DNA from: a virus
DNA length: 24,099 nt
Direction: 5' to 3' (one strand)
IMG/VR virus record: IMGVR_UViG_3300012271_000374
Location: 1 to 24,099 of that record
In this document: positions 696 to 20,563 of the stretch, piece after piece
Position numbering within the stretch: position 1 is the first letter of the stretch
How the letters are laid out: every line of letters starts with the position of its first letter
Notes under the pieces: model-generated
Databases searched by the model: none
What the model saw: the letters and a program-made list of their open reading frames with translations, nothing else
Told to the model about the DNA's origin: nothing
Program-made: the position numbers and the translations under genes

Positions 696-900
696 TTGAC
701 ATACTCCCAATGCTAAAGCAATTGGGATTCTAGCGTCAACAAGGACTGCTCAGAATTACTTCCAAGTCTTTTGTCCTCTCTGCTAACAGTCGATGCCCCG
801 ACTGTGTTTTTTGTATTTGCATTTGAGATTGTCCCAAGTGCATAATTTTTCAAGTTGATTGCAGCGTTCAAGTCTCTGTTGTGAATGGTTCCACATTCTT
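696..900 (-). ncRNA. Putative omega RNA (reRNA) of TnpB
   Basis: TnpB proteins of IS605-family elements use a noncoding RNA made from the 3' end of tnpB and the right end of the element, with the flanking host DNA as guide. Here tnpB ends inside the right-end hairpin, so the RNA scaffold must overlap the tnpB coding end almost completely. Its 3' boundary should be the right cleavage site at 696, and the guide would be read from about 695 to 676 in the interrupted gene. The 5' boundary given is a guess from the usual length of such RNAs. I did not fold it. Confidence 0.4.
705..727 (-). repeat. Right-end (RE) hairpin of the IS608-type element
   Basis: On the minus strand the stem is CCCAA, an unpaired T, TGC, loop TTTA, GCA, TTGGG. 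A single extrahelical T within the stem is also typical of IS608 ends. GAAT at 730-727 touches the 5' foot and TCAA at 699-696 follows the 3' foot. The tnpB stop codon (713-715) lies at the loop and inner stem, so the last codons of tnpB form one arm of the hairpin. Confidence 0.85.
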
Positions 901-1945
901 TGCAAGCCCATTCTCTATCTTTGAGTTGTAGTCCGATGTTAACGACACCACAATCAGAACAAGTCTTACTACTTGGAAAGAATTTATCGGCCAAGACAAG
1001 TTTGGTGCCAAGTTGTTGTGAGAAGTATTTAACATAACCAACGAATACACCGAAGCTTAAGTCGCTCATTTTACGACCCCAAATTCTTTTCATTCCTGTT
1101 AGTGTCAAATCTTCCAGGCAAATAACATCGAAGTCAAGACAAAGTTGTCTAGCAAGTTTCATCAAATAATCCTTGCGTTGGTCCGCAATTTTTATGTGAA
1201 TTCTAGCTACATGTTGTTTAGCTTTTAGTCTGTTGTTGCTTCCACGTTTCTTGCGAGATAACGAGCGTTGTCTTACTGCCAGTTCTTTATGAGAATGTTT
1301 GAAATACTGCGGAGACTTGAACTCTGTTCCGTCAGAACTAGTGAGGAAGGTCTTTAGACCAAAATCAAAGCCAGCGATTTTACCTGTCTCGACTCTTGTT
1401 TGATGGTCCTCTTCGTCACTTGTGTTCACAACAACGAAATAGAGATAAAGTTCTCCAATTGAATTACGTTTAATTGTTAGAGTTTTTATTTGCCCAAGAA
1501 TATCTCGGGACCTGTGAAAGCCGTAAGTATGCTTTCCTATTCTAAGTTGATTGGTTTCTTCAAATAGCTTATATCCCGCTTGCTTCAACGTGAAAGATTT
1601 ATAGTTTTTAAATTTTCTAAATCCTGGCGGAGAACATTTTCGCTTTTTCTTTATGTTAGAAAAGAACAATGTATAACTACGGTCAATACGTTCAACTACA
1701 TCTTGAATTGCTTGCGAAGGTAAAGTTTTCCAGTAAGCTTTACTGGAATGTCTATTTTTGATTTTTGTGAGATGCTTCATCAATTGAAACTTGTTCAAAT
1801 GCTTTTTGTAAAGCGAATAGTATCTGTTGTGAAGCGCAATTGAGTGATTGTATACACCAGCGAAGCGGTCAATTTGACTATAAAGAAGCTTATTTTTCTT
1901 GTCATTTTTGTATAACTTGAATTTATATGTCTTAACAACAGTCAT
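713..1945 (-). CDS. tnpB: TnpB, RNA-guided endonuclease of the IS608-type element
   Basis: The 410-residue protein has the normal TnpB layout. A basic N-terminal and helical part (residues about 1-185) comes first, then RuvC-I around D194 in GFDFGLKTFLTS, RuvC-II around E278 in ICLEDLTLTGM, a zinc ribbon with C329, C332, C348 and C351 (CSDCG and CKECG), and RuvC-III with D358 in HNRDLNAAINL. All three acidic residues and four cysteines are present, so it should be an active omega-RNA-guided nuclease, the family ancestral to Cas12. In this family it cuts empty donor sites next to the element's target motif and helps the element persist. The ATG lies 6 bases after the tnpA stop. The TAG stop falls within the right-end hairpin. 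It is a transposon gene, not part of a CRISPR system. Confidence 0.95.
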   Translation of the reverse strand: MTVVKTYKFKLYKNDKKNKLLYSQIDRFAGVYNHSIALHNRYYSLYKKHLNKFQLMKHLTKIKNRHSSKAYWKTLPSQAIQDVVERIDRSYTLFFSNIKKKRKCSPPGFRKFKNYKSFTLKQAGYKLFEETNQLRIGKHTYGFHRSRDILGQIKTLTIKRNSIGELYLYFVVVNTSDEEDHQTRVETGKIAGFDFGLKTFLTSSDGTEFKSPQYFKHSHKELAVRQRSLSRKKRGSNNRLKAKQHVARIHIKIADQRKDYLMKLARQLCLDFDVICLEDLTLTGMKRIWGRKMSDLSFGVFVGYVKYFSQQLGTKLVLADKFFPSSKTCSDCGVVNIGLQLKDREWACKECGTIHNRDLNAAINLKNYALGTISNANTKNTVGASTVSREDKRLGSNSEQSLLTLESQLL

Positions 1946-1951
1946 CCGATA

Positions 1952-2368
1952 TCACTTGTTTTTTTGGTCCATAATATATTGCTTTACTACTTCAAGTGAA
2001 ACCGAACCAACTGTGGATATAAATTTTGATCTAGTCCAAAGTGACGGTAGTCTACTTTTTATTGTCGGAAATTCTTCACGAATAAATCTTGAAGTGATAC
2101 CTTTGATGCGACCAACCGATTTATATATTCCAAACTTAGGGTCAGTCGATTCAATCAGCAAATGCACATGGTCTGGCATAATTTCCAATTCAATGATCTT
2201 ATAATGAAATTTATCTTGATATTCTAGAATAAGTTCTCTGGTTCTTAGTTCTACAGCATCGACCAAAACAGCCCGTCTATACTTTGGACAGAATATGACA
2301 TGATATTGACAACTATAAACAAGTGACTTCTTTTTAGAATATTCTTTTGCTTTATTTGTAATTTCCAT
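1952..2368 (-). CDS. tnpA: TnpA, Y1 HUH single-strand transposase
   Basis: This 138-residue protein is close to the usual IS200/IS605 transposase length (about 130-155). It shows the early QYHVIFCPKYRR segment, the HUH metal motif at H67-V-H69 in MPDHVHLLIE, and the catalytic tyrosine Y131 in VVKQYIMDQ near the C-terminus. Such enzymes work as dimers on single-stranded DNA, recognise sub-terminal hairpins, and excise the element as a circle that inserts 3' of a short target, here predicted to be TTAC. It is the promoter-proximal gene of the element, with tnpB 6 bases downstream. No truncation is visible. Confidence 0.95.
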   Translation of the reverse strand: MEITNKAKEYSKKKSLVYSCQYHVIFCPKYRRAVLVDAVELRTRELILEYQDKFHYKIIELEIMPDHVHLLIESTDPKFGIYKSVGRIKGITSRFIREEFPTIKSRLPSLWTRSKFISTVGSVSLEVVKQYIMDQKNK

Positions 2369-4041: not shown

Positions 4042-5328
4042 TTAACTTGTCATTTTCAATTTTGGTAATTTCAATTCGGGAAGCACGAGCTCTTTGTGTT
4101 CCGTTACCTTTACATTTTCTTTCATTAATTCATCAAATTTATCATGCATAGCCGATAATGAGAACTTCTTTCGTTTATCCCTTGCCAGCTTCTTTGTCTT
4201 TTCTGTAACGCCCGAATAATCATCATATACCGCATTGATTAACTGTGCGGCTGCGTTATAGTCAACTGTGAACCAATTTGATTCTTTCAGTAGAAATTTA
4301 TTCCTTGCAGACTTATGAACCTTTTCCATTTTACCACCAACCAACTCTGCATAATCTGATAGGAAGTCAATATGACCTGACCAATTAGATGCAATGATTG
4401 GTTTTCCAGTAAACATAAATTCCTGAAGCGGGCGGCCATATCCTTCTCCCTTTGTGAACGATACCATTGCCTTAACCTTTGGATGATTGTATAGAGAGTT
4501 CATTTGATCATCTGTGAGATCTCCATGTAAGAGATAAACATTTGGTAAATCTCCAGACATTGATTTCTTAATTGCATCAATTCTATTTGCCAATTCTACT
4601 CTATCTATTATAGAGAATGTTGCTCTACTGGATTTTATTATAAGACCCGGTTGATTCGGTTTGTTCTTAAATACGGTAAGAAGTGTTTTGATCATCATAC
4701 CAACATCTTTCCTATCATGTCCAATTTCACCTTCCAACCAATGTCCTACAAATAAATAATTGAAATCTTCTTCAATACCATCCATTTGCAATTCTAGTTC
4801 AGCATCGGGATTGTACTTATCATTATATACCGAAACATCTGAACCTTCAAATAACACTTCAACCGGCGTATCAACTTGGTACATTCCAACAACCTGTCCC
4901 GTTTGTTTGTGTTGTTCCTGATATTTACTATTCAACATGGTTGTTTTGGAATGTTCAGACGGAACAAGTATCAAGTCCATATTATTACACCCCTTTACCC
5001 AATCGATAGGCATTACGGTAGTTTCTATACCAGCGGTAATACCAATGTTATATTTTCCAATTTTCTGGAATTCATTAGGAACTGATACTTGTATCCAAAT
5101 ATCAGGCTGTTGGCTGATAGATTGCGTTAGAATTCGATCTAAAATCAACCTATCATTTTCATTTTCAGGATTCAATGCATTCATTGGGCAATTTCCCCAG
5201 CGCATTGATATTATTTTGACATCATACCTATCCATTTTAATTAAGGATAGTGTTAGGTCTCTGGCGTGGCTACCATATCCACTGCGAGTAGCGACTGGTC
5301 CTGATATTACGCATATTGGTTTATTCAT
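4042..5328 (-). CDS. Glycosyltransferase, group 1 / GT4-like (GT-B fold)
   Basis: The 428-residue protein opens with CVISGPVATRSGYGSHARDL, the glycine-rich acceptor-side loop of GT-B enzymes. The second Rossmann domain contains NYLFVGHWLEG, LIIKSSRATF and the donor-site E-x7-E motif in KGEGYGRPLQEFMFTGKP, followed by IIASNWSGHIDFL. It should transfer a sugar from a nucleotide donor to a cell-surface, virion or DNA acceptor; the substrate cannot be told. The last 20 residues are a Leu-Lys-Pro-rich tail (ELVLPELKLPKLK). Its ATG overlaps the TGA of the upstream gene, and the ASCH gene starts right after its TAA, so it is translated in a tight polycistron. Confidence 0.85.
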   Translation of the reverse strand: MNKPICVISGPVATRSGYGSHARDLTLSLIKMDRYDVKIISMRWGNCPMNALNPENENDRLILDRILTQSISQQPDIWIQVSVPNEFQKIGKYNIGITAGIETTVMPIDWVKGCNNMDLILVPSEHSKTTMLNSKYQEQHKQTGQVVGMYQVDTPVEVLFEGSDVSVYNDKYNPDAELELQMDGIEEDFNYLFVGHWLEGEIGHDRKDVGMMIKTLLTVFKNKPNQPGLIIKSSRATFSIIDRVELANRIDAIKKSMSGDLPNVYLLHGDLTDDQMNSLYNHPKVKAMVSFTKGEGYGRPLQEFMFTGKPIIASNWSGHIDFLSDYAELVGGKMEKVHKSARNKFLLKESNWFTVDYNAAAQLINAVYDDYSGVTEKTKKLARDKRKKFSLSAMHDKFDELMKENVKVTEHKELVLPELKLPKLKMTS

Positions 5329-7377: not shown

Positions 7378-7390
7378 ATTTATTTCTTTT

Positions 7391-7594
7391 TTAAAACGAA
7401 CCGCTTATTTCAAGTTCGGTTGTGCTATCTATTTTGTTTCTAAATTCTGTATCTGTTTCATATAGTAATATGGAACGATTCACTACTTCCTGTAGTGAGA
7501 TACCTTGCTGTAACGCAATCATCTTAAAGTTACGATATATATTCGTCAATAACTTTACACTCGTCAGCTTTGTTTTTTCATTTAATCTTGCCAT
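7391..7594 (-). CDS. Small ribbon-helix-helix-like DNA-binding protein
   Basis: The 67-residue protein has a basic N-terminus (MARLNEKTKL), one short beta strand (TSVKLL), then two helices (IYRNFKMIALQQG and SLQEVVNRSILLYETD), the order of a ribbon-helix-helix (CopG/Arc-like) domain. Proteins of this type in T4-like phages start almost the same way. It probably binds DNA as a dimer and may regulate early or middle genes. A 7-bp inverted repeat just upstream could be its own operator. It ends before the structured gap at 7313-7390 and marks the border between the replication genes and the glycosylation genes. Confidence 0.65.
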   Translation of the reverse strand: MARLNEKTKLTSVKLLTNIYRNFKMIALQQGISLQEVVNRSILLYETDTEFRNKIDSTTELEISGSF

Positions 7595-7598
7595 TATA

Positions 7599-7637
7599 AC
7601 AATCTCGTTTGTTTCATATATAAGTATATAAGATTGT
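7599..7637. promoter_or_regulatory. Possible operator/promoter of the RHH gene
   Basis: ACAATCT (7599-7605) and AGATTGT (7631-7637) form a perfect 7-bp inverted repeat around an AT-rich spacer (TATATAAGTATATA on the plus strand), ending 5 bases upstream of the RHH ATG. A TATAAT hexamer lies at the start codon side on the minus strand. Both are weak evidence in such AT-rich DNA. Confidence 0.25.
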
Positions 7638-7642
7638 ACTTT

Positions 7643-8506
7643 TCAATCAGCACCCGAACATAATACTTTATGGAAATCACACCAATCACAATGCCGTCCC
7701 GGCTTCTTAACATAATCTTTATCTATGTATTCACCACCATCATCAAAAACTTCATTGACAAACCAATTGAATTCAGATTTAGCCTGTCCTTGTTTGATTT
7801 TTCCACTTGGAGGTGAAAACTTTGTAATACGATGAACAGGCCATTCTTGTTCTTCTTCCGGAGGAACGATACGCTTCATTATATGAAACTCAACGGATAT
7901 GGTATCAATGTCAACATTGTACTGATTAGAATACCACACCTTATATAGAATTATCTGATTCTTTTTAGATTCATCATTCTTTTGCCACTTCGACCATCCT
8001 GTTGTTGATGTTTTCAAATCGATGATAATTGTATTTCCCTTATCATCTTCAAGAACAACGTCGATGAACCCAATAACATTGACATTCTTTCTAATTTCTG
8101 CCTTTACTGGAATTTCAATACCAACGAGTTTACATCCTTTCTTCTTGAAGAATTTACGTAAATTACTACCGCTCTTAAACCATCTAATAATTTCTACACC
8201 CTGCCAATAGAATTCTTCTATTTCTTCACGAGTACATACAAATTCACCATCGGGTAATTCAGCGTTGGCCTTGTTGAATTCATCAACAAGATTCATTTTC
8301 AAATCCGCTTCAAGATCCATATTCCTAGCAGCGGTGACGGTGTTGTTATAATATACCTCTAAAAATGATTGTACAGTTGTATGGACCGCCGATCCAAAAA
8401 TTGCATGAATTCCTGATTTTGTCTTGTTTTTATCAATATATTTCAGTTTGTATTTCTGTGGACATGATGAATATGTTGAATATTGTGAATAACTAACCCT
8501 TGCCAA
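7643..8506 (-). CDS. Cas4/RecB-like PD-(D/E)XK exonuclease with predicted Fe-S cluster
   Basis: The 287-residue protein starts with YSTYSSCPQKYKLKYI, the N-terminal helix and first cluster cysteine of the Cas4/AddB type. FGSAVHTTVQSF carries the motif-I histidine. The core of the PD-(D/E)XK fold is IGFIDVVLED followed by IIIDLKTST (D-x-K), with the helix NQIILYKVWY after it. The C-terminal HCDWCDFHKVLC gives C273, C276 and C283, which with C15 can hold a 4Fe-4S cluster. It is likely a single-strand exonuclease serving recombination or replication, as in many large phages. The start is a TTG at 8504-8506 with AAAGGT 7 bases upstream; no ATG fits. No CRISPR repeats or other cas genes are present. 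Confidence 0.85.
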   Translation of the reverse strand: MARVSYSQYSTYSSCPQKYKLKYIDKNKTKSGIHAIFGSAVHTTVQSFLEVYYNNTVTAARNMDLEADLKMNLVDEFNKANAELPDGEFVCTREEIEEFYWQGVEIIRWFKSGSNLRKFFKKKGCKLVGIEIPVKAEIRKNVNVIGFIDVVLEDDKGNTIIIDLKTSTTGWSKWQKNDESKKNQIILYKVWYSNQYNVDIDTISVEFHIMKRIVPPEEEQEWPVHRITKFSPPSGKIKQGQAKSEFNWFVNEVFDDGGEYIDKDYVKKPGRHCDWCDFHKVLCSGAD

Positions 8507-8508
8507 AT

Positions 8509-8991
8509 CTATACCTTTAATTTAAGTTTCTTAATCTTTTTTGGTTCGACTCCATACATTCCACACAACTTCATTATGACTAAATGACCAGAGTCTGTTC
8601 CATATAATATATCAAGATAATCATTTGCGTTTAGTACCGAACATTCAAAATGATGCTTGACATATTCGACCAACCAGCTTTCGTATTTATTTTCCTTTTT
8701 GCCCTTCATATATTTGAGATACCGGCGTTTCTTGGGTATAACACCTATCAACACTCTATACAACAATTCAGGTTCTAATGTCTGAACTATAGGTTGCAGT
8801 TCCGCTATTGTATCTACAAAATCTGGTTCCATCGATAAAAACCGAAGGACCATATAATTTGACCAGCTTTTAGTATCTCCATTCGTCAGCTTTTTCCAAT
8901 AATCCGGATCCTGATATTGGGTTATTTGATTCAGGTGTTGAAATAGGCTTTTCGGCTTTGCCGCCGAAGATTCTTTCCCAGTTTGTTTCAT
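8509..8991 (-). CDS. gp62-like clamp loader small subunit
   Basis: The 160-residue protein shows the pattern of the T4-type clamp loader small subunit (T4 gp62, 187 residues): LFQHLNQITQYQDPDYWKKL, WSNYMVLRFLSMEPDF, ELQPIVQTL, VIPKKRRYLKYMKGKKE and a C-terminal KKIKKLKLKV. It would complex with the gp44-like ATPase, one copy per four, to load the sliding clamp. It is encoded four genes downstream of the fractured gp44-like gene. The ATG at 8989-8991 lies inside the small gene 8870-9043, giving a 122-base out-of-frame overlap. The next Met is well inside the conserved region, so this start is preferred. Confidence 0.75.
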   Translation of the reverse strand: MKQTGKESSAAKPKSLFQHLNQITQYQDPDYWKKLTNGDTKSWSNYMVLRFLSMEPDFVDTIAELQPIVQTLEPELLYRVLIGVIPKKRRYLKYMKGKKENKYESWLVEYVKHHFECSVLNANDYLDILYGTDSGHLVIMKLCGMYGVEPKKIKKLKLKV

Positions 8992-9043
8992 ATTTCTTTA
9001 TATTTGTTGGGCGACGTTTGTCACCCTTTCCATTCTGACTCAT
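8870..9043 (-). CDS. Small SQNGKGDKRRP-type protein, overlaps the gp62-like gene
   Basis: An ATG at 9041-9043 overlaps the TGA of clpP (ATGA) and opens 57 codons: MSQNGKGDKRRPTNIKKY, then ETNWERIFGGK and a 27-residue tail. The beginning is the hallmark of a very common family of tiny phage and bacterial proteins (SQNGKGDxxRP...NWDRIFxK) with no known function. The conserved part would end about residue 29; the rest is read out of frame over the start of the gp62-like gene and may be a non-conserved extension. The small size hides it from length-filtered gene finding. Start overlap and motif together make it a real gene. Confidence 0.75.
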   Translation of the reverse strand: MSQNGKGDKRRPTNIKKYETNWERIFGGKAEKPISTPESNNPISGSGLLEKADEWRY

Positions 9044-9657
9044 CACAATATAGTATCAATGAGCCCATATTCCAGGCAAGTTTCAGCATCCCACCATAAA
9101 TCATGCTTCATTATTTCATCTAACTTATCAATTGGAACATTTGCATATTCAATGTAAAGGTTTTTAATCATAGAATGAAGCCGATCAAGGTTCACCTTTT
9201 CATCTTCAATTTCGTCCATCTTTCCCCAAAATGAAGATGATAATTGATGAATCAACATGTATGAATGTCTGTACATGTATCTGTTTTTACCGACAATACT
9301 GAAAAATGTTCCGGCTGATGATACGTAACCATCAACGTATGTATGTACTGGAGAATTACAATTCAATATTGTATCCATAGCGGATATACCAGCGAAAACG
9401 CTGCCACCAAATGAACTAACATAGAGCTTAATTGGAATAGAATCCACCCCATATGCCAAAGCTTCTTGCTGTAATTTTACATCCAGTTTTCTAATTTCAG
9501 TATTAAATTTAGCCACCGATTCGGATGTAACATCTGAACAAAACTGAATGATGTTCGCATCAATACTTATATCACTATTTGATATTTTTAGTGGTTCATT
9601 TGTTTCCAAGTCAATAATACCCCAGTGGGCTGTATCTTTTGTATTATTTTTTATCAT
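9043..9657 (-). CDS. clpP: Phage ClpP-like serine protease
   Basis: The 204-residue protein has the ClpP fold markers: the handle strand IPIKLYVSSFGGSVFAG with the oxyanion-hole glycines (84-85), GYVSSAGTFFSIVG with the likely nucleophile S114, YMLIHQLSS with the catalytic H137, and WWDAETCLEYGLIDTIL at the end. The acid is probably D186 in MKHDLWWD. Phage ClpP homologues may process head proteins or degrade host or phage regulators with a host Clp ATPase; no ATPase partner is in the window. It starts 3 bases after the zinc-ribbon gene stop and overlaps the next gene by ATGA. Confidence 0.9.
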   Translation of the reverse strand: MIKNNTKDTAHWGIIDLETNEPLKISNSDISIDANIIQFCSDVTSESVAKFNTEIRKLDVKLQQEALAYGVDSIPIKLYVSSFGGSVFAGISAMDTILNCNSPVHTYVDGYVSSAGTFFSIVGKNRYMYRHSYMLIHQLSSSFWGKMDEIEDEKVNLDRLHSMIKNLYIEYANVPIDKLDEIMKHDLWWDAETCLEYGLIDTIL

Positions 9658-9660
9658 GAT

Positions 9661-9945
9661 TTAATTAGGTGAAAAATCATCTTTCATTCCATCGGGCAGT
9701 AATTCTGATAGTACAGAACCACATTTAGCACACACCATCAATTCAACAGGAACAATGGCGTCTTGATCGGTTGCCAACGCTATCCTAGATAGTCTCTTAA
9801 ATGCAGATGCTGGAAGAAACATAGTTCCTCCACAGTTATCAGTCTTACATTGTAAATATTCAGCGCTGTTTAGAGCAGTTGCTATTTGTTGTGGAGTTGG
9901 TTGATTACCTTGGTGTGGGGGAGACCCCATATCTTTAATGTTCAT
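9661..9945 (-). CDS. Small zinc-ribbon protein
   Basis: The 94-residue protein has a Pro/Gln-rich, probably flexible start (residues 1-25), then two cysteine knuckles, LQCKTDNCGG and MVCAKCGSVL, about 35 residues apart, which together form a zinc ribbon. The function is unknown. It lies between the last piece of the clamp loader and clpP and is co-oriented with them, with 25 bases to the clamp-loader stop. A role in replication or transcription is possible but rests only on position and fold. Confidence 0.65.
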   Translation of the reverse strand: MNIKDMGSPPHQGNQPTPQQIATALNSAEYLQCKTDNCGGTMFLPASAFKRLSRIALATDQDAIVPVELMVCAKCGSVLSELLPDGMKDDFSPN

Positions 9946-9970
9946 TTGTTTGTTTATTTAAATTTATTTG

Positions 9971-10702
9971 TTATCGTATTTCTGATAGTATTTGGATGAT
10001 GCACGCCATGAACGAAATTTCTTTGTCAACTACCAATGCGTCTTGAGCCTGTCTATCAGCCAATATCAAAATACATGTTGTTTGTTTTCCATCAGCGTAT
10101 GTATCTACTTTATCCTTCAATAACGTATACATATCTGAAAAATCTCTGATAGAATTATCTGCTATGATTTGTCTAATCTTAAAGAACGAATCACGTCCAC
10201 CTATATCAGATGTCAATATATCTATAATTTTATGTTTAAAATCGGAATCAAGAATAACCTGAGTATCGACCTTTAGCTTGCCGCTTTTGGATTGTCTCTG
10301 TAGTGTGTTGATTGCCTTTCTAATATCTGGATATGATGCATCTACAATAGGTACCAGGTCCTTTATATCATATGTTATACCTTCCGATTCTAATATATTG
10401 ACGAGTTGCTTTGCCACATCACCCTTTGATGGTGGAGTTATCGCTTCATCTTGGCATCGTGATATAATCGGTTCAATAATCTTCTGGACGTAGTTACATG
10501 TTAGGATGAATCTACAGTGGCCAGAGAACGTTTCCATCAAATTACGCAATATTGCTTGCGAATTTGGAGTAAGATAATCGCAATTATGAGTTAACGTTTG
10601 TGTATGTCCTATAAAGAAGTTGTGATTTCCTTCTACCGATAAGTCGTATACATGTCGTTTTTTGTTTAGTTTGGTTATTGACTGGATTCCAATTTTATTC
10701 AT
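9971..10702 (-). CDS. gp44-like clamp loader, piece 3: C-intein 2 plus C-extein
   Basis: Residues 1-40 are a C-intein (MNKIGIQSITKLNKKRHVYD, then a segment ending TQTLTHN). From C41 the protein is the C-terminal two thirds of an AAA+ clamp loader: CDYLTPNSQAILRNLMETF completes Walker B and sensor helices, CRFILTCNYVQKIIEPI is sensor 1, and IISRCQ is the SRC arginine-finger motif. The lid and collar domains follow to residue 243. After trans-splicing to piece 2 through the Asn-Cys junction it gives the ATPase subunit that opens the sliding clamp. The ATG (10700-10702) overlaps the TAA of a 25-codon mini-ORF (TAATG). No conventional N-terminus is present, so the ORF is meaningless without the intein. 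Confidence 0.93.
   Translation of the reverse strand: MNKIGIQSITKLNKKRHVYDLSVEGNHNFFIGHTQTLTHNCDYLTPNSQAILRNLMETFSGHCRFILTCNYVQKIIEPIISRCQDEAITPPSKGDVAKQLVNILESEGITYDIKDLVPIVDASYPDIRKAINTLQRQSKSGKLKVDTQVILDSDFKHKIIDILTSDIGGRDSFFKIRQIIADNSIRDFSDMYTLLKDKVDTYADGKQTTCILILADRQAQDALVVDKEISFMACIIQILSEIR
10583..10702 (-). other. Split intein 2, C-terminal half (IntC, 40 aa)
   Basis: The segment has the F and G blocks of inteins: HVYDLSVEGNHNFFIG and LTHN, followed by Cys+1 of the extein. The length of 40 residues matches canonical split inteins of the gp41-1/NrdJ-1 kind. Its partner is the N-half at 10822-11124. Confidence 0.92.
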
Positions 10703-10779
10703 TAAATCCCACTTTTTAGTTTATTAAGTTGTTTTTTATTAACATCGTTGTCAAATTTTGATTCATCTATATATTCCAT
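10702..10779 (-). CDS. Possible 25-codon mini-ORF between the split-intein halves
   Basis: Between the N-half and C-half of intein 2 lies an ATG (10777-10779) opening MEYIDESKFDNDVNKKQLNK and five more codons. Its TAA overlaps the ATG of piece 3, so translating it could couple to piece 3. In related fractured genes this spot may hold a homing endonuclease, but nothing here resembles one. There is no strong ribosome-binding site. It may be chance. Confidence 0.25.
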   Translation of the reverse strand: MEYIDESKFDNDVNKKQLNKLKSGI

Positions 10780-10818
10780 GATATTTGATTCATTAATCCA
10801 AATGAAGGAAAATATTAA

Positions 10819-11673
10819 CTATGGTGATAAAATATGATTATATTTATGTAATTCAGATGCCTTGACTACAATACATTCACCTGTTGAATTTTCAACATAC
10901 CATTTGTGGTCTGCTGTACATATCACACATTCTCCATTTTCTAATTCAATTTCATATACATCCTGGATTCCCTTATCCCATAAATAAAATGGTCTATATT
11001 CCACTTTATTTCGTTTAGTATTATATGATTTGACTAGGTCTTTATGTTCATCCAGATCCCGTATGGGTATGGATACATCCTTTCCTTTCCTGATAACGGA
11101 GACAAGAGTGTTTTCATCCAAGCATTCATCCAGAACTACAATCTTATATGGCTTAAATCCTTGGCTTGATGCGAAGTTCTTTATCTTACCACGTACCGTA
11201 TCTACGTTGTTTTCATCGGAAGCGTTGATAATAATGTAATCACATTCGATTGAATTCACAATCAATTTTGACAAAGTTGTATTGTGAGATATAATACCAG
11301 ATGCTGTAATGTATTCATGTGGGCTGTTTAATGCCATATCAAATACATCTGTATTTTCTGATACATCATTTTTAGATAAAATTAACTTATTACCATAAAT
11401 AGTATCGACTGATTTGATGGAATCTATATGATGGAATGTCCCATTTGATTTAACAAGGTGTCGTTCATCGCACCTAATAGAAATACCATCTTCCAATGTA
11501 TAAGTTGCTACGGTTCCTACTTTTCGTATCAACGCGTTAATTTGAGTATATTGGCCATTTGGTGTTTTAATTTTCAAATGTCGATCAATATCAATTTCTT
11601 CATTATAACCAAAGTCTGAATATCCGAAGAATTCAAATAATTTCGATATTGGTATTTTTAATTTAACATTCAT
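10819..11673 (-). CDS. gp44-like clamp loader, piece 2: C-intein 1, middle extein, N-intein 2
   Basis: The 284-residue ORF has intein sequence at both ends and only 52 residues of clamp loader between. Residues 1-131 are C-intein 1, ending ITASGIISHN. Residues 132-183 (TTLSKLIVNSIECDYIIINA through YKIVVLDE) run from the Walker A threonines to the Walker B acidic pair. Residues 184-284 are N-intein 2, starting CLDENTLVSVIRKG. It must react with piece 1 at its N-terminus and piece 3 at its C-terminus to yield a working ATPase. The ATG is 45 bases after the stop of piece 1, and the upstream sequence has only a weak AAAGAAA ribosome site. It stops at a TAG after ...NHILSP. Confidence 0.93.
   Translation of the reverse strand: MNVKLKIPISKLFEFFGYSDFGYNEEIDIDRHLKIKTPNGQYTQINALIRKVGTVATYTLEDGISIRCDERHLVKSNGTFHHIDSIKSVDTIYGNKLILSKNDVSENTDVFDMALNSPHEYITASGIISHNTTLSKLIVNSIECDYIIINASDENNVDTVRGKIKNFASSQGFKPYKIVVLDECLDENTLVSVIRKGKDVSIPIRDLDEHKDLVKSYNTKRNKVEYRPFYLWDKGIQDVYEIELENGECVICTADHKWYVENSTGECIVVKASELHKYNHILSP
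10822..11124 (-). other. Split intein 2, N-terminal half (IntN, 101 aa)
   Basis: Block A begins with the nucleophile in CLDENTLVSV. Block B has ECVICTADHKWYV with the T-x-x-H motif (TADH). The half ends soon after the ASELHKYNH segment. The length agrees with canonical N-inteins. It is fused directly to the Walker B residues LDE. Confidence 0.92.
11281..11673 (-). other. Split intein 1, C-terminal half (IntC, 131 aa, atypical split)
   Basis: This C-half is far longer than usual because the split point lies near the N-terminus of the intein. It carries block B (SIRCDERHLVKS), where the usual T-x-x-H reads D-E-R-H. Block F is DVFDMALNSPHEYIT and block G is GIISHN, followed by Thr+1. Layout and ending resemble the AceL-TerL/VidaL class of atypically split phage inteins. 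Confidence 0.85.
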
Positions 11674-11718
11674 TTATAATTTCTTTTTGTTTTGTGATAT
11701 AATATTCTATCCAAGTAA

Positions 11719-11988
11719 CTATACTAAATAATCAGATAACATATCTAGTTCATCTTCCGATAAATCTATTTCTATTTCTATAATTTCAGATGCATCCAAA
11801 CATTTTCCTGTTCCCGCTCTACCATGAAATAATAGATGAGGAATATCCCCATCATCAATATATGCTTTGATACGTTCCTTTAACGGTTCATTTCCAACAT
11901 ACTGTTCGAGTGTAGTTGGGCGGAATTTTTCCACCCAAAGCGAATTATTAACCGGTGTGGAATCATCCACATTTTCAAAAAAACTCAT
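11719..11988 (-). CDS. gp44-like clamp loader, piece 1: N-extein plus N-intein 1
   Basis: Residues 1-62 are the start of a clamp loader ATPase: SLWVEKFRPTTLEQYVGN is the RFC-box signature, and PHLLFHGRAGTGK is the Walker A loop cut exactly after the lysine. Residues 63-89 (CLDASEIIEI through SDYLV) are a 27-residue N-intein. The ORF then stops with TAG. Piece 2 supplies the rest of the intein and the Walker A threonines, so the P-loop GxxGTGK|TT is formed only after trans-splicing. It starts 3 bases after the Mom-like gene. Confidence 0.93.
   Translation of the reverse strand: MSFFENVDDSTPVNNSLWVEKFRPTTLEQYVGNEPLKERIKAYIDDGDIPHLLFHGRAGTGKCLDASEIIEIEIDLSEDELDMLSDYLV
11722..11802 (-). other. 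Split intein 1, N-terminal half (IntN, only 27 aa)
   Basis: The half starts with Cys1 (CLDASEIIEI) directly after Walker A lysine and ends at the TAG after LSDYLV. It is acidic (about nine Asp/Glu), which would suit binding to the partner half. Only block A is present; block B is in piece 2. Such short N-halves are known from AceL-TerL type inteins. Confidence 0.85.
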
Positions 11989-11991
11989 TTA

Positions 11992-12648
11992 TTATTCCTT
12001 TACATATTCATTTGATTCAAGCATCAATCTTGATGCCTTTTTCTTTCCATTTCTATTGAGCGCCTTCCAATATAAATATTTACCTTCATCATAATGTGGT
12101 TCTATATCCAAATCAGGCCGCTGATCTTTTAACTTACTGGGACTACGCGTTCCATATCTAGCATTGCACGTTCTACCAGGCACAAATGTTCCATCTATAA
12201 TCAAACCATCCATTGCTCTTTTTCGTTTCCCATGAAAGTTCCAGGATGCAGCCTGATAGATCCCACCATGATGTCCCTGTGTACTATCAGCAAACGATAC
12301 TATTAAATCGTGTTGTGTATTGCGTTTCAGCCATTTTAATGATTCTGATAACAGTCCTGTTAATGGTGGAATACCATCCTGCTCTGATCTGACCAGGCGT
12401 AACAATTCTATTACTTCTTCCGACCATCTAGTTGGTGGTGATGAAAATACTGCACCTGCAACACAATCACCAGGAATTTCTCCCCATGGAGATTTTCTTG
12501 GAAAATGCCAAGAAAAAGTATTTATTGAATTAACCGGGCGACCTGAATAATGAAATTCCTTAATCAGTTCAGATACTTGATCCTTTTGATTTACTTCAAA
12601 CAACAGCGAAATCATTTTATCCCAAATAACTTTTTGATTGAAACCCAT
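11992..12648 (-). CDS. Mom-like DNA modification protein (GNAT-related), candidate
   Basis: The 218-residue protein has the layout of phage Mom-type proteins: an early EFHYSGRP segment, WGEIPGDCVAGAVFSSPP, a helix with ELLRLVRSEQDGIPPLTG, and the signature LIVSFADSTQGHHGGIYQAASWNFHG. NARYGTRSPSKLK follows. In phage Mu, Mom turns adenine into a carbamoylmethyl form that blocks restriction, and homologues occur in many unrelated phages. A like role here is inference. It sits just upstream of the clamp loader pieces and starts inside the end of the preceding gene (37-base overlap). An internal Met at residue 12 is a possible alternative start. No Com-like translation activator was recognised nearby. 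Confidence 0.65.
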   Translation of the reverse strand: MGFNQKVIWDKMISLLFEVNQKDQVSELIKEFHYSGRPVNSINTFSWHFPRKSPWGEIPGDCVAGAVFSSPPTRWSEEVIELLRLVRSEQDGIPPLTGLLSESLKWLKRNTQHDLIVSFADSTQGHHGGIYQAASWNFHGKRKRAMDGLIIDGTFVPGRTCNARYGTRSPSKLKDQRPDLDIEPHYDEGKYLYWKALNRNGKKKASRLMLESNEYVKE

Positions 12649-12942: not shown

Positions 12943-13203
12943 TTAATTGCCGTTTCGTTTCCAATTGTCAATATAACCACCATCTTCCAGTAAGTCAAGC
13001 ATTGCTTCATATACATAATGATTATTATCGACTAATTCACCACGAATGTATATTTCTCCATTCTGCCGAATATCAATTATCGTTTCATTTGATTGTTTAA
13101 ATTCAAATACAGTTAGAGTCGAATTTGGTTCGGTGGTTCCTATTCCAAAAAACCCGGTGGGTCCTACATCATATCCACTTAATTTATTTTTATCGTCCAA
13201 CAT
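12943..13203 (-). CDS. Small hypothetical protein with tail-fibre-like motif
   Basis: The 86-residue protein begins with a Gly-rich stretch, GPTGFFGIGTTEPNSTLTVF. The G-I-G-T-T-x-P-x-S-x-L-x-V motif is common in beta-helical tail-fibre and adhesin repeats. The remainder reads like a short beta strand pair (IDIRQNGEIYIRGELV) and an acidic helix (YVYEAMLDLLEDGG). It is too short to be a fibre by itself and may be a small structural or assembly protein. It overlaps the upstream gene by 14 bases and ends 13 bases before the next ATG, so it is part of the operon. Function unknown. Confidence 0.55.
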   Translation of the reverse strand: MLDDKNKLSGYDVGPTGFFGIGTTEPNSTLTVFEFKQSNETIIDIRQNGEIYIRGELVDNNHYVYEAMLDLLEDGGYIDNWKRNGN

Positions 13204-14416
13204 CTTTCAAATACCTCTTTTTTGCATCTTCCCATGACATTCCTATGATGTCAATGTAGAATAAAGTTTCGTCTTTCAACCTATTATCATCATACAATTT
13301 CTGATAGCGGCGTATTGCTTTCGGTTTCCACCATTTAATTGTATAAGCGTCACCTTCTATAAATTTCTTTTTCATTTTCAGTTCAGAATGTTTTATTTCA
13401 TTTCGAAGAAATGATGGACCATTATCATACATCATAGCGCCGTAATACCCCCGTTGAAACCCGTGGTGATATTGAGATCCCTTAATACTAAGATGTTTAA
13501 ATATTCTACTTAAAATCTTTTGCTTAATACCACTAACAGGACCGGATCTACCTGAATCCGTTCCATACATGTTTTCACCGTTTCTGTTTCTTTCTTCTGT
13601 TATTTCTGTGGTATACCATTCATTGTCATTTTCTTTCAACCATTGGTGCCACGGTTCATATACAGAATCATCTGGTTTAATTGCAATTTTGCCAGCGGTT
13701 ACTCCTAATGTTTTGAAATGCGGGATTGCATTATATTGTGAATGAATTCCATACAATGAAGTTGTACCCACTGCAATTAGTTCATCACCATATTTTTCTT
13801 TCCACACATCTCTAACGGTTGGAGATGTTGCCAATGCTGCGATCAACTTCCCTCCCAGAAAGTTGAACCCAAGTGGTTGCGTTGCAACAATGGTCGTTGC
13901 AATCGTTGTGTTGTTCAGTTTCCCGTCCTTGAAGCGATTGTCTCTAGTCCAACCTATGTAATCATCCCTTACTTTCAGAGCCGTTACATCGGAACCTAAG
14001 CAAATCTGGCCAAGTATTTTATTCGTTATCCTATCCTTTACATAGAATTTCAAATTCCTACCTGGATTGGCGGAAAATTCCATCGTATGAATTAACTTTC
14101 TTACTTCAACCCATTTACTCGCATCCTTTGGATTATCTACCCATTCTACGTATGGTTCAATATTCTCTATTTCAGAAATAGTCTGTTGTAGATTTGTTAT
14201 ATCGGTTGGTTTCCATATATCATCAAAGTACATACCCAAGTATGATTTTTGAGGATATGTTTTTTCCAAATCGGCATTCCATTCTACCCACTTCTTATAT
14301 AGAGTCTGCTCTTCAACTGTCATTGAAAAGAGATAGTCCATGTTTTCAATGAACTTTTTCTTTTCGGATTCAAATTCAAAACCAGTTACTTCTTCACCTA
14401 CGTCCCAAAATGACAT
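13190..14416 (-). CDS. DUF4338/DruA-like protein, candidate
   Basis: The 408-residue protein has a central region that resembles DUF4338 (the DruA domain of Druantia systems): ILGQICLGSDVTAL, then VRDDYIGWTRDNRF, an Asn-Thr-rich strand (LNNTTIATTIVATQPLGFNF), GGKLIAALATSP, a W-K-x-K-Y-G-D-E-L segment and GTTSLYGIHSQYNAIPHFK. The C-terminal YHHGFQRGYYGAMMYDNGPS and WWKPKAIRRYQKLY recall large-phage versions of unknown role. In phages these may be modification, counter-defence or DNA-transaction proteins; none can be claimed here. A TTG at 14432-14434 would overlap the clamp gene, so I chose the ATG at 14416, just after the clamp's TAA. The nearby Mom-like gene makes a shared role in genome protection worth considering. 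Confidence 0.5.
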   Translation of the reverse strand: MSFWDVGEEVTGFEFESEKKKFIENMDYLFSMTVEEQTLYKKWVEWNADLEKTYPQKSYLGMYFDDIWKPTDITNLQQTISEIENIEPYVEWVDNPKDASKWVEVRKLIHTMEFSANPGRNLKFYVKDRITNKILGQICLGSDVTALKVRDDYIGWTRDNRFKDGKLNNTTIATTIVATQPLGFNFLGGKLIAALATSPTVRDVWKEKYGDELIAVGTTSLYGIHSQYNAIPHFKTLGVTAGKIAIKPDDSVYEPWHQWLKENDNEWYTTEITEERNRNGENMYGTDSGRSGPVSGIKQKILSRIFKHLSIKGSQYHHGFQRGYYGAMMYDNGPSFLRNEIKHSELKMKKKFIEGDAYTIKWWKPKAIRRYQKLYDDNRLKDETLFYIDIIGMSWEDAKKRYLKDVGR

Positions 14417-14420
14417 ATTA

Positions 14421-15116
14421 TTATTTAATTTCAACTAGAAAATATTCAGATGTGTAATCACCGCCAGTAAATGATGCAACGCAAAGACCTGCCGTTGATA
14501 TTTTCAATGATGATTCCGTACTACCACGATTAGCGGATAGAATAGCCTTCAAAAAGTTAGCAGAGAACGTTATGGATTCTACATCCTTTTCAACTGTAGC
14601 ATTAACTTTGATCGAAATTCTATTTGTGTTTATTGTTGAAAATCCAAGAACAATTTCATGTACACCCTTATATGATGTAAATGTAAATTTGTCAGAATCG
14701 GATAATGCACCAGTCGATTTAATAAATCTAGAAACAAATTCATCATCCAATTTAATTTCAACATCAAAATCAGGCTGAGCCTTCAAGTCTGGAACACTTG
14801 GAATTACAGCTTCTTGTGATTTCATATACCGAACTTCGGACACTTCATCATTGAAAATCAAAGAGTGGTCGTTTGCTGTAACTTTGATGTTATTATCAAG
14901 AACAGACAATAGAGATTTAAGTTGAGATGTTGTGTATATTCCATATCGACCATCTGGCATTGTTTCATCCTTCATAGAAACAGAACCAAGTAATGTTTTA
15001 TCATCCGATATCATACGTGTTGATACATTTTCACCATCAACGTTGATCATTACTGATTCAACGGCGCCGAGCAAACTGTACCTATTCAAAAACCCTTCAA
15101 ATTTGGTTTTATTCAT
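14421..15116 (-). CDS. Sliding clamp (gp45-like)
   Basis: The 231-residue length matches T4 gp45 (228) and the sequence follows the clamp fold: a short N-terminal helix (KFEGFLNRYSLLGAVES), the strand MINVDGENVSTRMI, the helix of the second half (EFVSRFIKSTGAL) and repeated amphipathic strands to the end (YTSEYFLVEIK). It would form a trimeric ring that tethers the polymerase and also serves late transcription in T4-like phages. It lies between polB and the DruA-like gene, in the same operon as its loader. Confidence 0.8.
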   Translation of the reverse strand: MNKTKFEGFLNRYSLLGAVESVMINVDGENVSTRMISDDKTLLGSVSMKDETMPDGRYGIYTTSQLKSLLSVLDNNIKVTANDHSLIFNDEVSEVRYMKSQEAVIPSVPDLKAQPDFDVEIKLDDEFVSRFIKSTGALSDSDKFTFTSYKGVHEIVLGFSTINTNRISIKVNATVEKDVESITFSANFLKAILSANRGSTESSLKISTAGLCVASFTGGDYTSEYFLVEIK

Positions 15117-17678: not shown

Positions 17679-18368
17679 TTAGACTATTTCACAGTTACCG
17701 GCAGCGCAGGCTAACTCTCCACTTAAATCTGTATTATCTTCTACTTCAATAATATTAGTAAGTTCCACTCCTGACAATGATTTCATCATTTCCATATATT
17801 CGGATTCTGTACATTCTTCAAATGGAGCCTGTACATAGCTATGATCCGAATCATCATACGGTAAACAACTCAGCCCATTGAATTTTCCCTTATTTTTCCA
17901 CATCCAATCTGCCACCATACCCCATTCATTTTCTTTTATTGATACCGTTGCTGACACATTGTGTGTATTTGCTCCCTTTCTATGTCCAGAAGCGACCCAT
18001 TGAGTATTCCACCTTGCTACTCTTTCGAGAAAGTCCATTGTTGTTTCTTTCTTCCGAGTAACAGCAGTATCTGGAGCCTTTTGGGGTATTCCAATAACCG
18101 CCTGTTCGGTTGGTCGGAAGTATTCATCTTCTACCAATTCAGGATGATTTTGTTCCAAATATTGATATATTGCTTCATTTTTTCCAACACGAATATGTCT
18201 TATATAATATTCAGAGTGCCACGCGTGAATTCCGGATGAACATCCAAGAACCAAGCTGGACGTATTATGCACCACATTTCCATTTTTCAACTGATAGCTG
18301 TGTGTGTTTTGTACTTCTACATCTACCGTAAATCTTCTCTTTCCTTTTTTTACCGAACGTACCCGCAT
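17679..18368 (-). CDS. nrdJ: Class II ribonucleotide reductase, piece 2: C-intein plus C-terminal extein
   Basis: Residues 1-35 (MRVRSVKKGKRRFTVDVEVQ through NGNVVHN) are a C-intein. From T36 on (TSSLVLGCSSGIHAWHSEYY) the sequence is the last third of a B12-dependent reductase, with IRHIRVGKNEAIYQYL, TTMDFLERVARWNTQWV and the redox-active C-terminus ACAAGNCEIV with two cysteines that re-reduce the active site. Trans-splicing joins it to VKPSG of piece 1, restoring the conserved PSG-TSS turn. The ATG has GGAG six bases upstream. The 83-base gap to piece 1 has only an 18-codon ORF ending just before the ATG and no homing endonuclease. Confidence 0.93.
   Translation of the reverse strand: MRVRSVKKGKRRFTVDVEVQNTHSYQLKNGNVVHNTSSLVLGCSSGIHAWHSEYYIRHIRVGKNEAIYQYLEQNHPELVEDEYFRPTEQAVIGIPQKAPDTAVTRKKETTMDFLERVARWNTQWVASGHRKGANTHNVSATVSIKENEWGMVADWMWKNKGKFNGLSCLPYDDSDHSYVQAPFEECTESEYMEMMKSLSGVELTNIIEVEDNTDLSGELACAAGNCEIV
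18264..18368 (-). other. RNR split intein, C-terminal half (IntC, 35 aa)
   Basis: The F block is FTVDVEVQNTHSYQL and the G block NVVHN, followed by Thr+1. The length is canonical for a C-half. The N-half is at 18455-18811. Confidence 0.92.
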
Positions 18369-18451: not shown

Positions 18452-20563
18452 TTAAATATCCAAAACAGTCGATTTCGCCGTAGAATATGACTTTATTTCA
18501 TCATTTTCTTGTAGTTCATCCGCACGCACCCACCCACGATTCTCTACCAAAAATCTATGATTTGGAGTACAAGCAATAACCGAGCCATCTTCCATTTCAA
18601 TATCAAAAGTATCTTCCATTCCATTTACATACAATTGTGTAATTTCTTGATATTCGTTGTTCATATCAAGAGCATATATTTTTTCTGTTACTGGTAAAAA
18701 TAGCGCATCAACATCGTTCAATTTATCTAAATCATATCCATTCAATTCAAACAATTGTTCAAACGATATTACTCCCTTTGATGTTTTGATTTTGGTAGAT
18801 GGTATCATACATCCACTTGGTTTGACTGTTGTGGTTCTGGCAGCGGAATTGATTCCTATTAAATTTGCTACTCTTTTGTTTTCAGATAATACTTCTTTGG
18901 CCGCTTCTTCCAAGTCCAATGGGAACACAACACCACTTGCAATTCCGGTCATACCAACACCAACCAACGCTTCTTTTTCAGTCGTACGTTTCCAAATATC
19001 ACGCAAATAGTGAAAATCGGTATATCCAGCCTGTAATGTTCCAATAAATGCTGCTACCCGTACACGTTTATTCAAATCATGCTGATCACTAACGTTAGAT
19101 GCGTTTACTTCTGTAAGATTGCAGAACTGGTTTGACCGTAGTGCGATTTCAGCACAATTATGAACCAATACACCATTTGCAAAGAAATTATGATTGTCGG
19201 CAACTGCGACATCATAAACATCTTCATTTTTACGTATTTTTATTTTTTTAATTCGGCCCTGGGCTGTCTTAAATTGGGCCATTTTTCTTTCTCCTTTTTG
19301 TAATAATACAATTTCATCACTTTCCACCAATTCCGAAGCTTTTATGTATTCTCTATTTACTGTGTAGACTAGGTGATCTGGTGTTAATTTTAACATTTCT
19401 CCGGATTCCAATTCCAATTCTACAATAGAGGCGGTCCGCCTAGTCATTTCCGACCCCAATAGTTCTTTCCATTCAGGTATATTGGTAGTTGTATTATACG
19501 AAAGAATTTCCATCGTTGAATCAACAGGAAGCGCATTATACAATGATACTAATTCATCCATCCGTATTAAGGAATGATTTGATGTTATAGAATTACGTAT
19601 AATGACTTCAGAATCTCCCGTCAAACACGGGTTCGTTCCCATATCCTTATCATGTGAAAAATACACACCTGGTTCACCTGAACCGCTTTTCTTTACACGC
19701 TCCCAAAATGCTAAGAATTCATTCTTCTTTACTCTATGTCGCATAATAACAGCTGAATTGTTTGCGCGGCCTCTATGTGGGTTCAATTCCCACCAGTTAC
19801 CAAACTTACACGTCGCCATTACTTCATCATCAAACGAAAACAATGATATCAGCGCTGCCCTTCGGATTCCGCCTGCTAATACAGCATCGGCAATAAAACA
19901 AATAATATCATGAACTTCTAATGTAGATAATCTATCTCCATCTTCCTTTGTATCAAGAATCTTTATAATATTATGTACACAATCTTTAAGCGGTTGCGGT
20001 CCTGGTGCCTTTCCACCCGATGTTACCAATTGTGCACCCTTTGGTCTAATATCGGAATAATCAAAAACAGGCGTCGATTTTCCTTCAAAATAAGCCCGCA
20101 TCAAAACCTTAATAGTATCAGCCCACCCTTCGATAGAATCTCCGATTAGGAAGCGCCTATTTCTATTGGGATTGGGTTTTCTTATTTCAGGTAATTTATC
20201 TACATGGTGGTACTGTACTGAATATCCGACTCCAGTGCCGCCCAATAAAAGAAACATTGTTTCACTAAAAGCTCTCCAATCATCCATTGGTAAATATGCA
20301 CAATTGTAAACCCTATTTGGGCTAATCTCTATTGGCTTTCCTCCAAATTGAAGGCTTCTCATTGATGGTAAAACTTTCTTGTCGTAAACAAATTTATAAG
20401 CTTCACGTATTTCATCTTCCAATTTTGGGTATCGCTTAATATGCATTTCCATATTTCGTGTAACCAATTCATCCCATGTCTCTCTTCTACCAATTTCTGG
20501 CTTATGCTTTGCGTATTTCATATACACCGTTATGTCTGACAAAATCTCGTTGCTTATATTCAT
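18452..20563 (-). CDS. nrdJ: Class II ribonucleotide reductase, piece 1: two exteins, a cis intein and an N-intein
   Basis: The 703-residue ORF holds residues 1-312 of extein (LPSMRSLQFGGKPIEISPN, ETMFLLLGGTGVGYSVQ, RRFLIGDSIEGWADT, TSGGKAPGPQPL), a 157-residue contiguous intein (313-469), extein 470-584 (CAEIALRSNQFCNLTEVNAS through TTTVKPSG) and an N-intein (585-703). The extein pattern is that of monomeric adenosylcobalamin-dependent ribonucleoside triphosphate reductases, so no small subunit is needed and none is seen. The mature enzyme after one cis- and one trans-splicing event would be about 621 residues. It supplies dNTPs for the replisome encoded around it. The ATG follows an AGAGAAA site; a hairpin separates it from the helicase gene. 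Confidence 0.95.
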   Translation of the reverse strand: MNISNEILSDITVYMKYAKHKPEIGRRETWDELVTRNMEMHIKRYPKLEDEIREAYKFVYDKKVLPSMRSLQFGGKPIEISPNRVYNCAYLPMDDWRAFSETMFLLLGGTGVGYSVQYHHVDKLPEIRKPNPNRNRRFLIGDSIEGWADTIKVLMRAYFEGKSTPVFDYSDIRPKGAQLVTSGGKAPGPQPLKDCVHNIIKILDTKEDGDRLSTLEVHDIICFIADAVLAGGIRRAALISLFSFDDEVMATCKFGNWWELNPHRGRANNSAVIMRHRVKKNEFLAFWERVKKSGSGEPGVYFSHDKDMGTNPCLTGDSEVIIRNSITSNHSLIRMDELVSLYNALPVDSTMEILSYNTTTNIPEWKELLGSEMTRRTASIVELELESGEMLKLTPDHLVYTVNREYIKASELVESDEIVLLQKGERKMAQFKTAQGRIKKIKIRKNEDVYDVAVADNHNFFANGVLVHNCAEIALRSNQFCNLTEVNASNVSDQHDLNKRVRVAAFIGTLQAGYTDFHYLRDIWKRTTEKEALVGVGMTGIASGVVFPLDLEEAAKEVLSENKRVANLIGINSAARTTTVKPSGCMIPSTKIKTSKGVISFEQLFELNGYDLDKLNDVDALFLPVTEKIYALDMNNEYQEITQLYVNGMEDTFDIEMEDGSVIACTPNHRFLVENRGWVRADELQENDEIKSYSTAKSTVLDI
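18455..18811 (-). other. RNR split intein, N-terminal half (IntN, 119 aa)
   Basis: It starts CMIPSTKIKT right after VKPSG. Block B is SVIACTPNHRFLV with T-x-x-H (TPNH), followed by NRGWVRADELQENDEI. It ends with a 12-residue tail and a TAA. The N-half is somewhat longer than the 88-105 residues of well-known relatives. Confidence 0.92.
19157..19627 (-). other. Contiguous mini-intein in the reductase (157 aa, NrdJ-1-like)
   Basis: It runs from C313 (CLTGDSEVIIRNS) to N469 (ANGVLVHN) at the site GTNP|CAEI. Block B is EMLKLTPDHLVYT and block F VYDVAVADNHNFF. There is no endonuclease domain. Both parts resemble the split NrdJ-1 intein known at the same reductase site, but here the halves are in one frame, joined at KGERK-MAQF. 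Confidence 0.9.
19280..19296 (-). promoter_or_regulatory. Internal Shine-Dalgarno and ATG inside the mini-intein
   Basis: On the minus strand AAGGAG (19296-19291) is followed after eight bases by ATG (19282-19280), in frame with the reductase at M428, exactly at the border between the N-half-like and C-half-like parts of the intein. It could start a separate C-intein plus extein polypeptide. Confidence 0.6.

What the first reader, a model, noticed from the sequence alone, without database searches (positions are those of the whole stretch)
9971..11988. Clamp loader ATPase made from three ORFs by two different split inteins
The gp44-like gene is broken at both nucleotide-binding motifs: Walker A (GTGK|TT) and Walker B (LDE|CD). 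The pieces encode 62, 52 and 203 extein residues, total 317, close to T4 gp44. Fractured phage genes with one split intein are known. A three-piece gene needing two ordered or independent trans-splicing events in an essential replisome ATPase is, as far as I know, not described. Until both occur no piece can bind ATP, so splicing could gate replication.
Basis: partly seen in the sequence, partly recalled or inferred. Interest (0 to 1): 0.9.

Follow-up and report, generated by a model that had tools for sequence, protein, structure and literature searches.

The report
Phage clamp-loader gene fractured twice
A phage gene for a DNA-replication motor protein is broken into three separate genes whose products carry two different self-splicing protein tags, so the working protein most likely exists only after two protein-joining reactions; related viruses show that each break belongs to its own mobile DNA element.

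Summary
Three minus-strand ORFs encode 62, 52 and 203 residues of one gp44/RFC-type clamp loader (317 in all), broken exactly after GTGK (Walker A) and LDE (Walker B). Intein 1 is divergent and atypically split (27 + 131 aa); intein 2 is canonically split (101 + 40 aa). A syntenic sister virus (L003/L015, about 84% identical) has one continuous gene with both sites empty. Other viruses carry only site 1 (split or contiguous) or only site 2 (split). Three further IMG/VR records share the double fracture; with the window they fall in at least three places of the extein tree. The fullest, L198, has an intact HNH endonuclease gene in gap 1 and an unrelated endonuclease gene in gap 2. The window has lost both: gap 2 keeps a clear 3' stub of the second (E = 1.6e-12), gap 1 a probable stub of the first (6/3000 shuffles). 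So this is a 'fractured gene' of the known split-intein kind, hit twice by independent mobile elements. I found no description of a natural doubly fractured gene, but the founding paper was not readable here. Gating of replication by splicing is unsupported, and splicing itself is untested.

The parts
11803..11988 (-). Extein A: residues 1-62 of the clamp loader, ending in Walker A GTGK
   Evidence: phrog_168 positions 6-57, E 1e-13; 76% identical to continuous L003
11722..11802 (-). Intein-1 N piece, 27 aa, net charge -10
   Evidence: Conserved in L004, L209, L198, L186, L193; charge count
11663..11718 (-). Gap 1 (11674-11718) and start of ORF B: probable 3' remnant of an HNH endonuclease gene (TWIEYYITKQKEIINEC*)
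   Evidence: 6 of 3000 shuffles score as well against the L004 stub; same reading frame as in L004, L209, L186
11281..11673 (-). Intein-1 C piece, 131 aa, ending HN before Thr+1
   Evidence: Family profile hits solved inteins, best 7qil E 2e-6; contiguous homologues in LR756508 and L195
11125..11280 (-). Extein B: 52 aa from the Thr after GTGK to Walker B LDE
   Evidence: phrog_168 positions 56-109, E 4e-13; 87% identical to L003
10822..11124 (-). Intein-2 N piece, 101 aa
   Evidence: NCBIfam intein_Nterm 39.2 bits, cut-off 24.5
10703..10818 (-). Gap 2: 3' stub of the site-2 homing-endonuclease-like gene (FSFIWINESNIMEYIDESKFDNDVNKKQLNKLKSGI*)
   Evidence: HMM of endonucleases from L005, L008, L009, L013, L016: E 1.6e-12, the only hit in the six-frame window
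10583..10702 (-). Intein-2 C piece, 40 aa, ending LTHN before Cys+1
   Evidence: NCBIfam intein_Cterm 28.3 bits, cut-off 15.6
9974..10582 (-). Extein C: 203 aa, rest of the AAA+ module, lid and collar
   Evidence: phrog_168 positions 109-309, E 2e-38; 85% identical to L003

Best explanation
This is a doubly fractured phage clamp-loader (gp44/RFC small subunit) gene. Two unrelated mobile split-intein units, each with its own homing endonuclease gene between its halves, inserted independently at the two nucleotide-binding motifs of one gene. In this virus both endonuclease genes have been deleted, apart from 3' stubs that overlap or abut the start of the next piece. The three polypeptides (A-IntN1, IntC1-B-IntN2, IntC2-C) should be joined by two orthogonal protein trans-splicing reactions, in either order, into one 317-residue ATPase. 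Shown here: the anatomy, the empty-site sister, the single-site relatives, the archetype with both endonuclease genes, the gap-2 stub, and amino-acid constraint on the intein pieces. Inferred: that splicing occurs, that the two inteins do not cross-react, that the endonucleases home, and that the stubs survive because they hold the translation start region of the next piece.
For: Consecutive match of the pieces to one family. Continuous syntenic sister with both sites empty. Both inteins recognised. Site-1-only relatives L186, L193, L195, LR756508 and site-2-only relatives. Same double fracture in L004, L209, L198, not one clade on the extein tree. Endonuclease genes in both gaps of L198; stubs in the window. 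Position-3 changes exceed position-2 changes in every piece, window against L004. Cys1, terminal HN and +1 Thr/Cys are intact in the window.
Against: No expression or splicing data. The HNH remnant in the window's gap 1 is short and only moderately significant (6/3000). Intein 1 lies below the curated Pfam and NCBIfam cut-offs. The record is a fragment, so a second, intact gp44 elsewhere in the genome cannot be excluded.
Confidence: 0.86

Rival explanations
1. Regulatory gate: the two fractures are kept because double trans-splicing delays or conditions ATPase activity, and thereby replication.
For: Both breaks lie in the ATP site, so unspliced pieces should be inactive (sequence; alignment to solved clamp loaders).
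Against: Inteins generally favour such conserved motifs (PMC5874633). The nearest sister lacks both; distribution is patchy; endonuclease genes and stubs mark mobile elements. Natural phage split inteins tested so far include very fast ones (gp41-1, NrdJ-1, IMPDH-1; PMC7090010).
Confidence: 0.05
2. Assembly or frameshift artefact of a gene with two contiguous inteins.
For: Contiguous site-1 inteins do exist.
Against: L004, L209 and L198 show the same three-ORF plan from other assemblies, with equal lengths of ORFs A and B in L004; endonuclease genes lie in the gaps of relatives.
Confidence: 0.02
3. Decaying gene: the pieces are no longer functional and another clamp loader serves the phage.
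For: The record is only 24 kb; both endonuclease genes are lost.
Against: All splicing residues and loader motifs are intact and position-3 changes dominate; the adjacent polymerase, clamp, helicase and recombinase genes are intact; no second copy in the record.
Confidence: 0.05
4. The pieces assemble non-covalently into an active loader without ligation.
For: Halves of split inteins bind each other tightly (established for the family).
Against: Cys1, the C-terminal Asn and the +1 nucleophile are kept at both sites in all four double-fracture records; only splicing needs them. Penultimate His is Ser at site 2 in L209 and L198.
Confidence: 0.02

Closest known systems
Fractured genes with a split intein and an intervening homing endonuclease (Dassa et al. 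2009; AceL NrdHF, PMC7891396; PolB of phage MIJ3, PMC6892783)
   Same: Phage replication or nucleotide gene broken at an intein site; intein halves on the two pieces; endonuclease gene between them (present in L198, L209 and site-2 relatives, lost here)
   Different: One gene broken twice, by two unrelated units, so that the middle piece carries both an IntC and an IntN; endonuclease genes reduced to stubs
[quoted passage not shown] PMC10189870)
   Same: Intein 1: 27-aa IntN and 131-aa IntC
   Different: Divergent sequence, in a clamp loader, and combined with a second, canonically split intein in one protein
Contiguous inteins in archaeal RFC and several contiguous inteins in one phage gene (PMC5874633, PMC7886860, PMC3322345)
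   Same: Clamp loader as intein host; more than one intein per gene
   Different: Those are contiguous; here both are split and need trans-splicing
Engineered three-piece ligation with two orthogonal split inteins (e.g. PMC7090010)
   Same: Middle piece carries IntC of one intein and IntN of another
   Different: Designed in the laboratory; this one is natural and recurrent

Membership tests
Fractured gene (split intein plus homing endonuclease) | Host gene broken into ORFs exactly at intein insertion sites | tested here: met
   Two breaks; empty sites in L003/L015
Fractured gene (split intein plus homing endonuclease) | Endonuclease gene between the halves | tested here: not met
   In the window only 3' stubs remain; intact in L198. 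Filed as a derived form that lost it.
Fractured gene (split intein plus homing endonuclease) | Protein trans-splicing of the pieces | not testable with these tools
   Needs expression
Class 1 intein (intein 2) | Cys1, block B TxxH, terminal HN, +1 nucleophile, recognised by intein models | tested here: met
   CLDENT..., TADH, LTHN|C; NCBIfam above cut-off at both ends
Class 1 intein (intein 1) | Cys1, block B His, terminal HN, +1 nucleophile | tested here: met
   CLDASE..., CDERH (Thr of TxxH replaced by Asp), SHN|T; conserved in relatives
Class 1 intein (intein 1) | Passes curated intein models | tested here: inconclusive
   Below Pfam and NCBIfam cut-offs, but the family profile hits solved inteins first
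Atypically split intein | IntN much shorter than the usual ~100 aa | tested here: met
   27 aa in the window; about 27-32 aa in split relatives
gp44/RFC small-subunit clamp loader | Walker A, Walker B, SRC motif and lid over the joined exteins | tested here: met
   GTGK|TT, LDE|CD and SRC in sequence; phrog_168 and Gp44_lid matches; intact L003 matches archaeal RFC and T4 gp44 structures
gp44/RFC small-subunit clamp loader | ATP-dependent clamp loading | not testable with these tools
   Needs purified, ligated protein

The most novel reading that the evidence does not exclude
A natural three-polypeptide protein built by two orthogonal trans-splicing events in which at least one reaction is slow or conditional, so that the double fracture times clamp loading during infection.
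Probability: 0.05. Interest if true: 0.85.

Novelty: new variant of a known kind. Interest (0 to 1): 0.62.

Why it matters
It appears to be a natural counterpart of engineered tandem trans-splicing: one middle fragment with the IntC of one intein and the IntN of another, in a core replication gene. Its recurrence in at least three lineages, the empty-site sister, the single-site forms and the L198 archetype lay out the likely steps: separate invasions, endonuclease gene loss, and fractures that remain. It also offers a naturally co-existing pair of split inteins, one with a 27-aa IntN, that ought to be orthogonal; this is directly testable and useful for three-piece protein ligation.

Tried and rejected
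Replication gate: no evidence found, and the selfish-element evidence speaks against it. Artefact: rejected by three independent records. Bacterial and archaeal genomes searched with ORF B: nothing; the junction pattern there gave three chance hits. One search was a mistyped pattern (spacer 10 bases short) and is ignored; the corrected scan is. Fold models of ORF B and of the L195 protein were of low confidence (pLDDT 59 and 63), so Foldseek results serve only as support. The mixed extein+intein query A2 returned only intein-free loaders; the intein-only query found only L004; DNA patterns did better. The pattern scans give a lower bound on double fractures, since they demand fixed spacing and exact residues. 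Literature: nine searches, no natural doubly fractured gene found; Dassa et al. 2009 not held.

Full report
OBSERVATION. On the minus strand: A, 11719-11988 (89 aa); B, 10819-11673 (284 aa); C, 9971-10702 (243 aa). Read as exteins plus intein pieces they are 62+27, 131+52+101 and 40+203. The exteins sum to 317. The ORFs tile the PHROG clamp-loader family phrog_168 (314 positions) at 6-57, 56-109 and 109-309. The window is the whole IMG/VR record, 24,099 bases.

EMPTY SITES. L003/L015, the nearest relative (about 84% identical in the loader; syntenic at 70-77% DNA identity over much of 5.3-16.2 kb of the window), has one continuous ORF. Window blocks 11803-12594, 11122-11265 and 7384-10581 are contiguous in L015 (4052-8178), so each site holds a clean insert of about 540 bp. 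Residue +1 of site 2 is Cys in the intein carriers and Ser, Ala or Phe in the empty-site relatives read.

THE INTEINS. Intein 2 passes NCBIfam cut-offs for both intein_Nterm and intein_Cterm and has the common split, 101 + 40 aa. Intein 1 is divergent. Pfam Intein_splicing finds its end only below cut-off, but a profile of six family members hits solved inteins first: 7qil 2e-6, Npu DnaE 0.0011, Spl DnaX 0.0012, VidaL 0.0021, gp41-1 0.0046. It is atypically split, 27 + 131 aa. Its IntN carries net charge -10 (-8, -8, -9 and -5 in split relatives), against -1 and -3 in the matching stretch of the contiguous forms; this fits charge-assisted pairing of halves. Between the window and L004, third-position changes exceed second-position changes in every piece, so the pieces are under amino-acid constraint. 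The fold of ORF B was of low confidence, but its Foldseek hits are nearly all inteins.

RELATIVES. Site 2 alone, split: L005/L006, L008/L010, L009, L013, L014, L016, L017, L021, and distantly LR756500. Site 1 alone: split in L186 and L193; contiguous in L195 and in the 484-kb phage LR756508. Both sites split: L004, L188/L209 and L198. A scan of the viral collection with a pattern spanning both inner junctions found exactly these three besides the window. Eighty further clamp-loader loci are intein-free. On the extein tree the four double fractures fall in at least three places, and holding them together is rejected (p-AU 1.6e-104). The window's sister is the intein-free L003; L209 and L198 group with the site-2-only L014. 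The tree does not tell gains from losses.

THE ENDONUCLEASES. In most single site-2 carriers the gap holds an ORF that matches phage endonuclease families and looks PD-(D/E)XK-like; in L017 and L021 only short remnants are left. L198 carries the complete set: A, an HNH endonuclease (PHROG HNH 5e-8), B, the site-2 endonuclease (phrog_15427, 5e-20), C. In L209 both endonuclease genes are frameshifted and a FkbM-type methyltransferase gene sits in gap 2. L193 has a different, long ORF in gap 1. Window gap 2 keeps the last 36 or so residues of the site-2 endonuclease (HMM E = 1.6e-12, the only hit in the six-frame window). Window gap 1 (45 nt) keeps a probable HNH remnant: 6 of 3000 shuffles score as well, and the frame is the same as in L004, L209 and L186. 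The L004 and L186 gap-1 stubs are clear (0 of 1000). In nearly every case the endonuclease ORF, or its stub, ends inside or at the start of the next piece. I infer that deletions spare these bases because they contain the translation start region of the next piece.

MECHANISM. Each fracture is best read as a mobile split-intein unit with its own endonuclease gene. One gene received two such units. The endonuclease genes were later lost, but the fractures remain, since undoing one requires an exact junction. The product should form by two trans-splicing reactions in either order. Cross-pairing is possible in principle (IntC1 with IntN2 would cyclise the 52-aa middle piece) and must be excluded by experiment; the different split positions and the acidic IntN1 argue against it. 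No splicing was shown here.

WHAT IS KNOWN. Phage fractured genes with one split intein are known (AceL NrdHF, PMC7891396; PolB of MIJ3, PMC6892783), as are short-IntN inteins (PMC10189870), two inteins in one phage gene (TerL of a crAss-like phage, PMC7886860; genes of Campylobacter phage IBB_35, PMC3322345) and inteins in archaeal RFC (PMC5874633). Multi-piece ligation by orthogonal split inteins is known as engineering (PMC7090010). I found no natural doubly fractured gene in nine searches. Dassa et al. 2009 was not held, so prior mention there cannot be excluded.

VERDICT. Observation confirmed; interpretation partly supported. It is a new variant of a known kind: a recurrent, doubly fractured gene. 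The gating idea is left at about 5%.

Noticed in passing
18452-20563 and 17679-18368 (-): Class II ribonucleotide reductase gene with one contiguous mini-intein and a further split intein (IntN at the end of the 703-aa ORF, 35-aa IntC at the start of the next ORF), so this virus should carry three split-intein pairs and one contiguous intein.
   Followed up: partly
L004:435-3033: IMPDH gene fractured by a split intein, with an endonuclease-like ORF between the halves, just upstream of the doubly fractured clamp loader.
   Followed up: partly
L004:3637-3843 and 4697-4962: Both gaps hold a nearly identical element (AATAATAAAAAAGAAAACCCCTTCCTTTAGGTAG...), possibly a hairpin; its role is unknown.
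   Followed up: no
L195:6187-7557 (-): Contiguous site-1 intein in which the acidic IntN tail runs straight into the body of IntC and the first ~13 residues of IntC are missing; it may be a re-fused split intein.
   Followed up: no
L209:6307-6906: FkbM-type methyltransferase gene inserted in gap 2 together with a frameshifted endonuclease gene.
   Followed up: no
11992-12648, 13190-14434, 713-2368 (-): Mom-family gene directly upstream of the loader, a DruA-family protein, and an IS200/IS605-like pair (OrfB/TnpB-like and TnpA-like).
   Followed up: no
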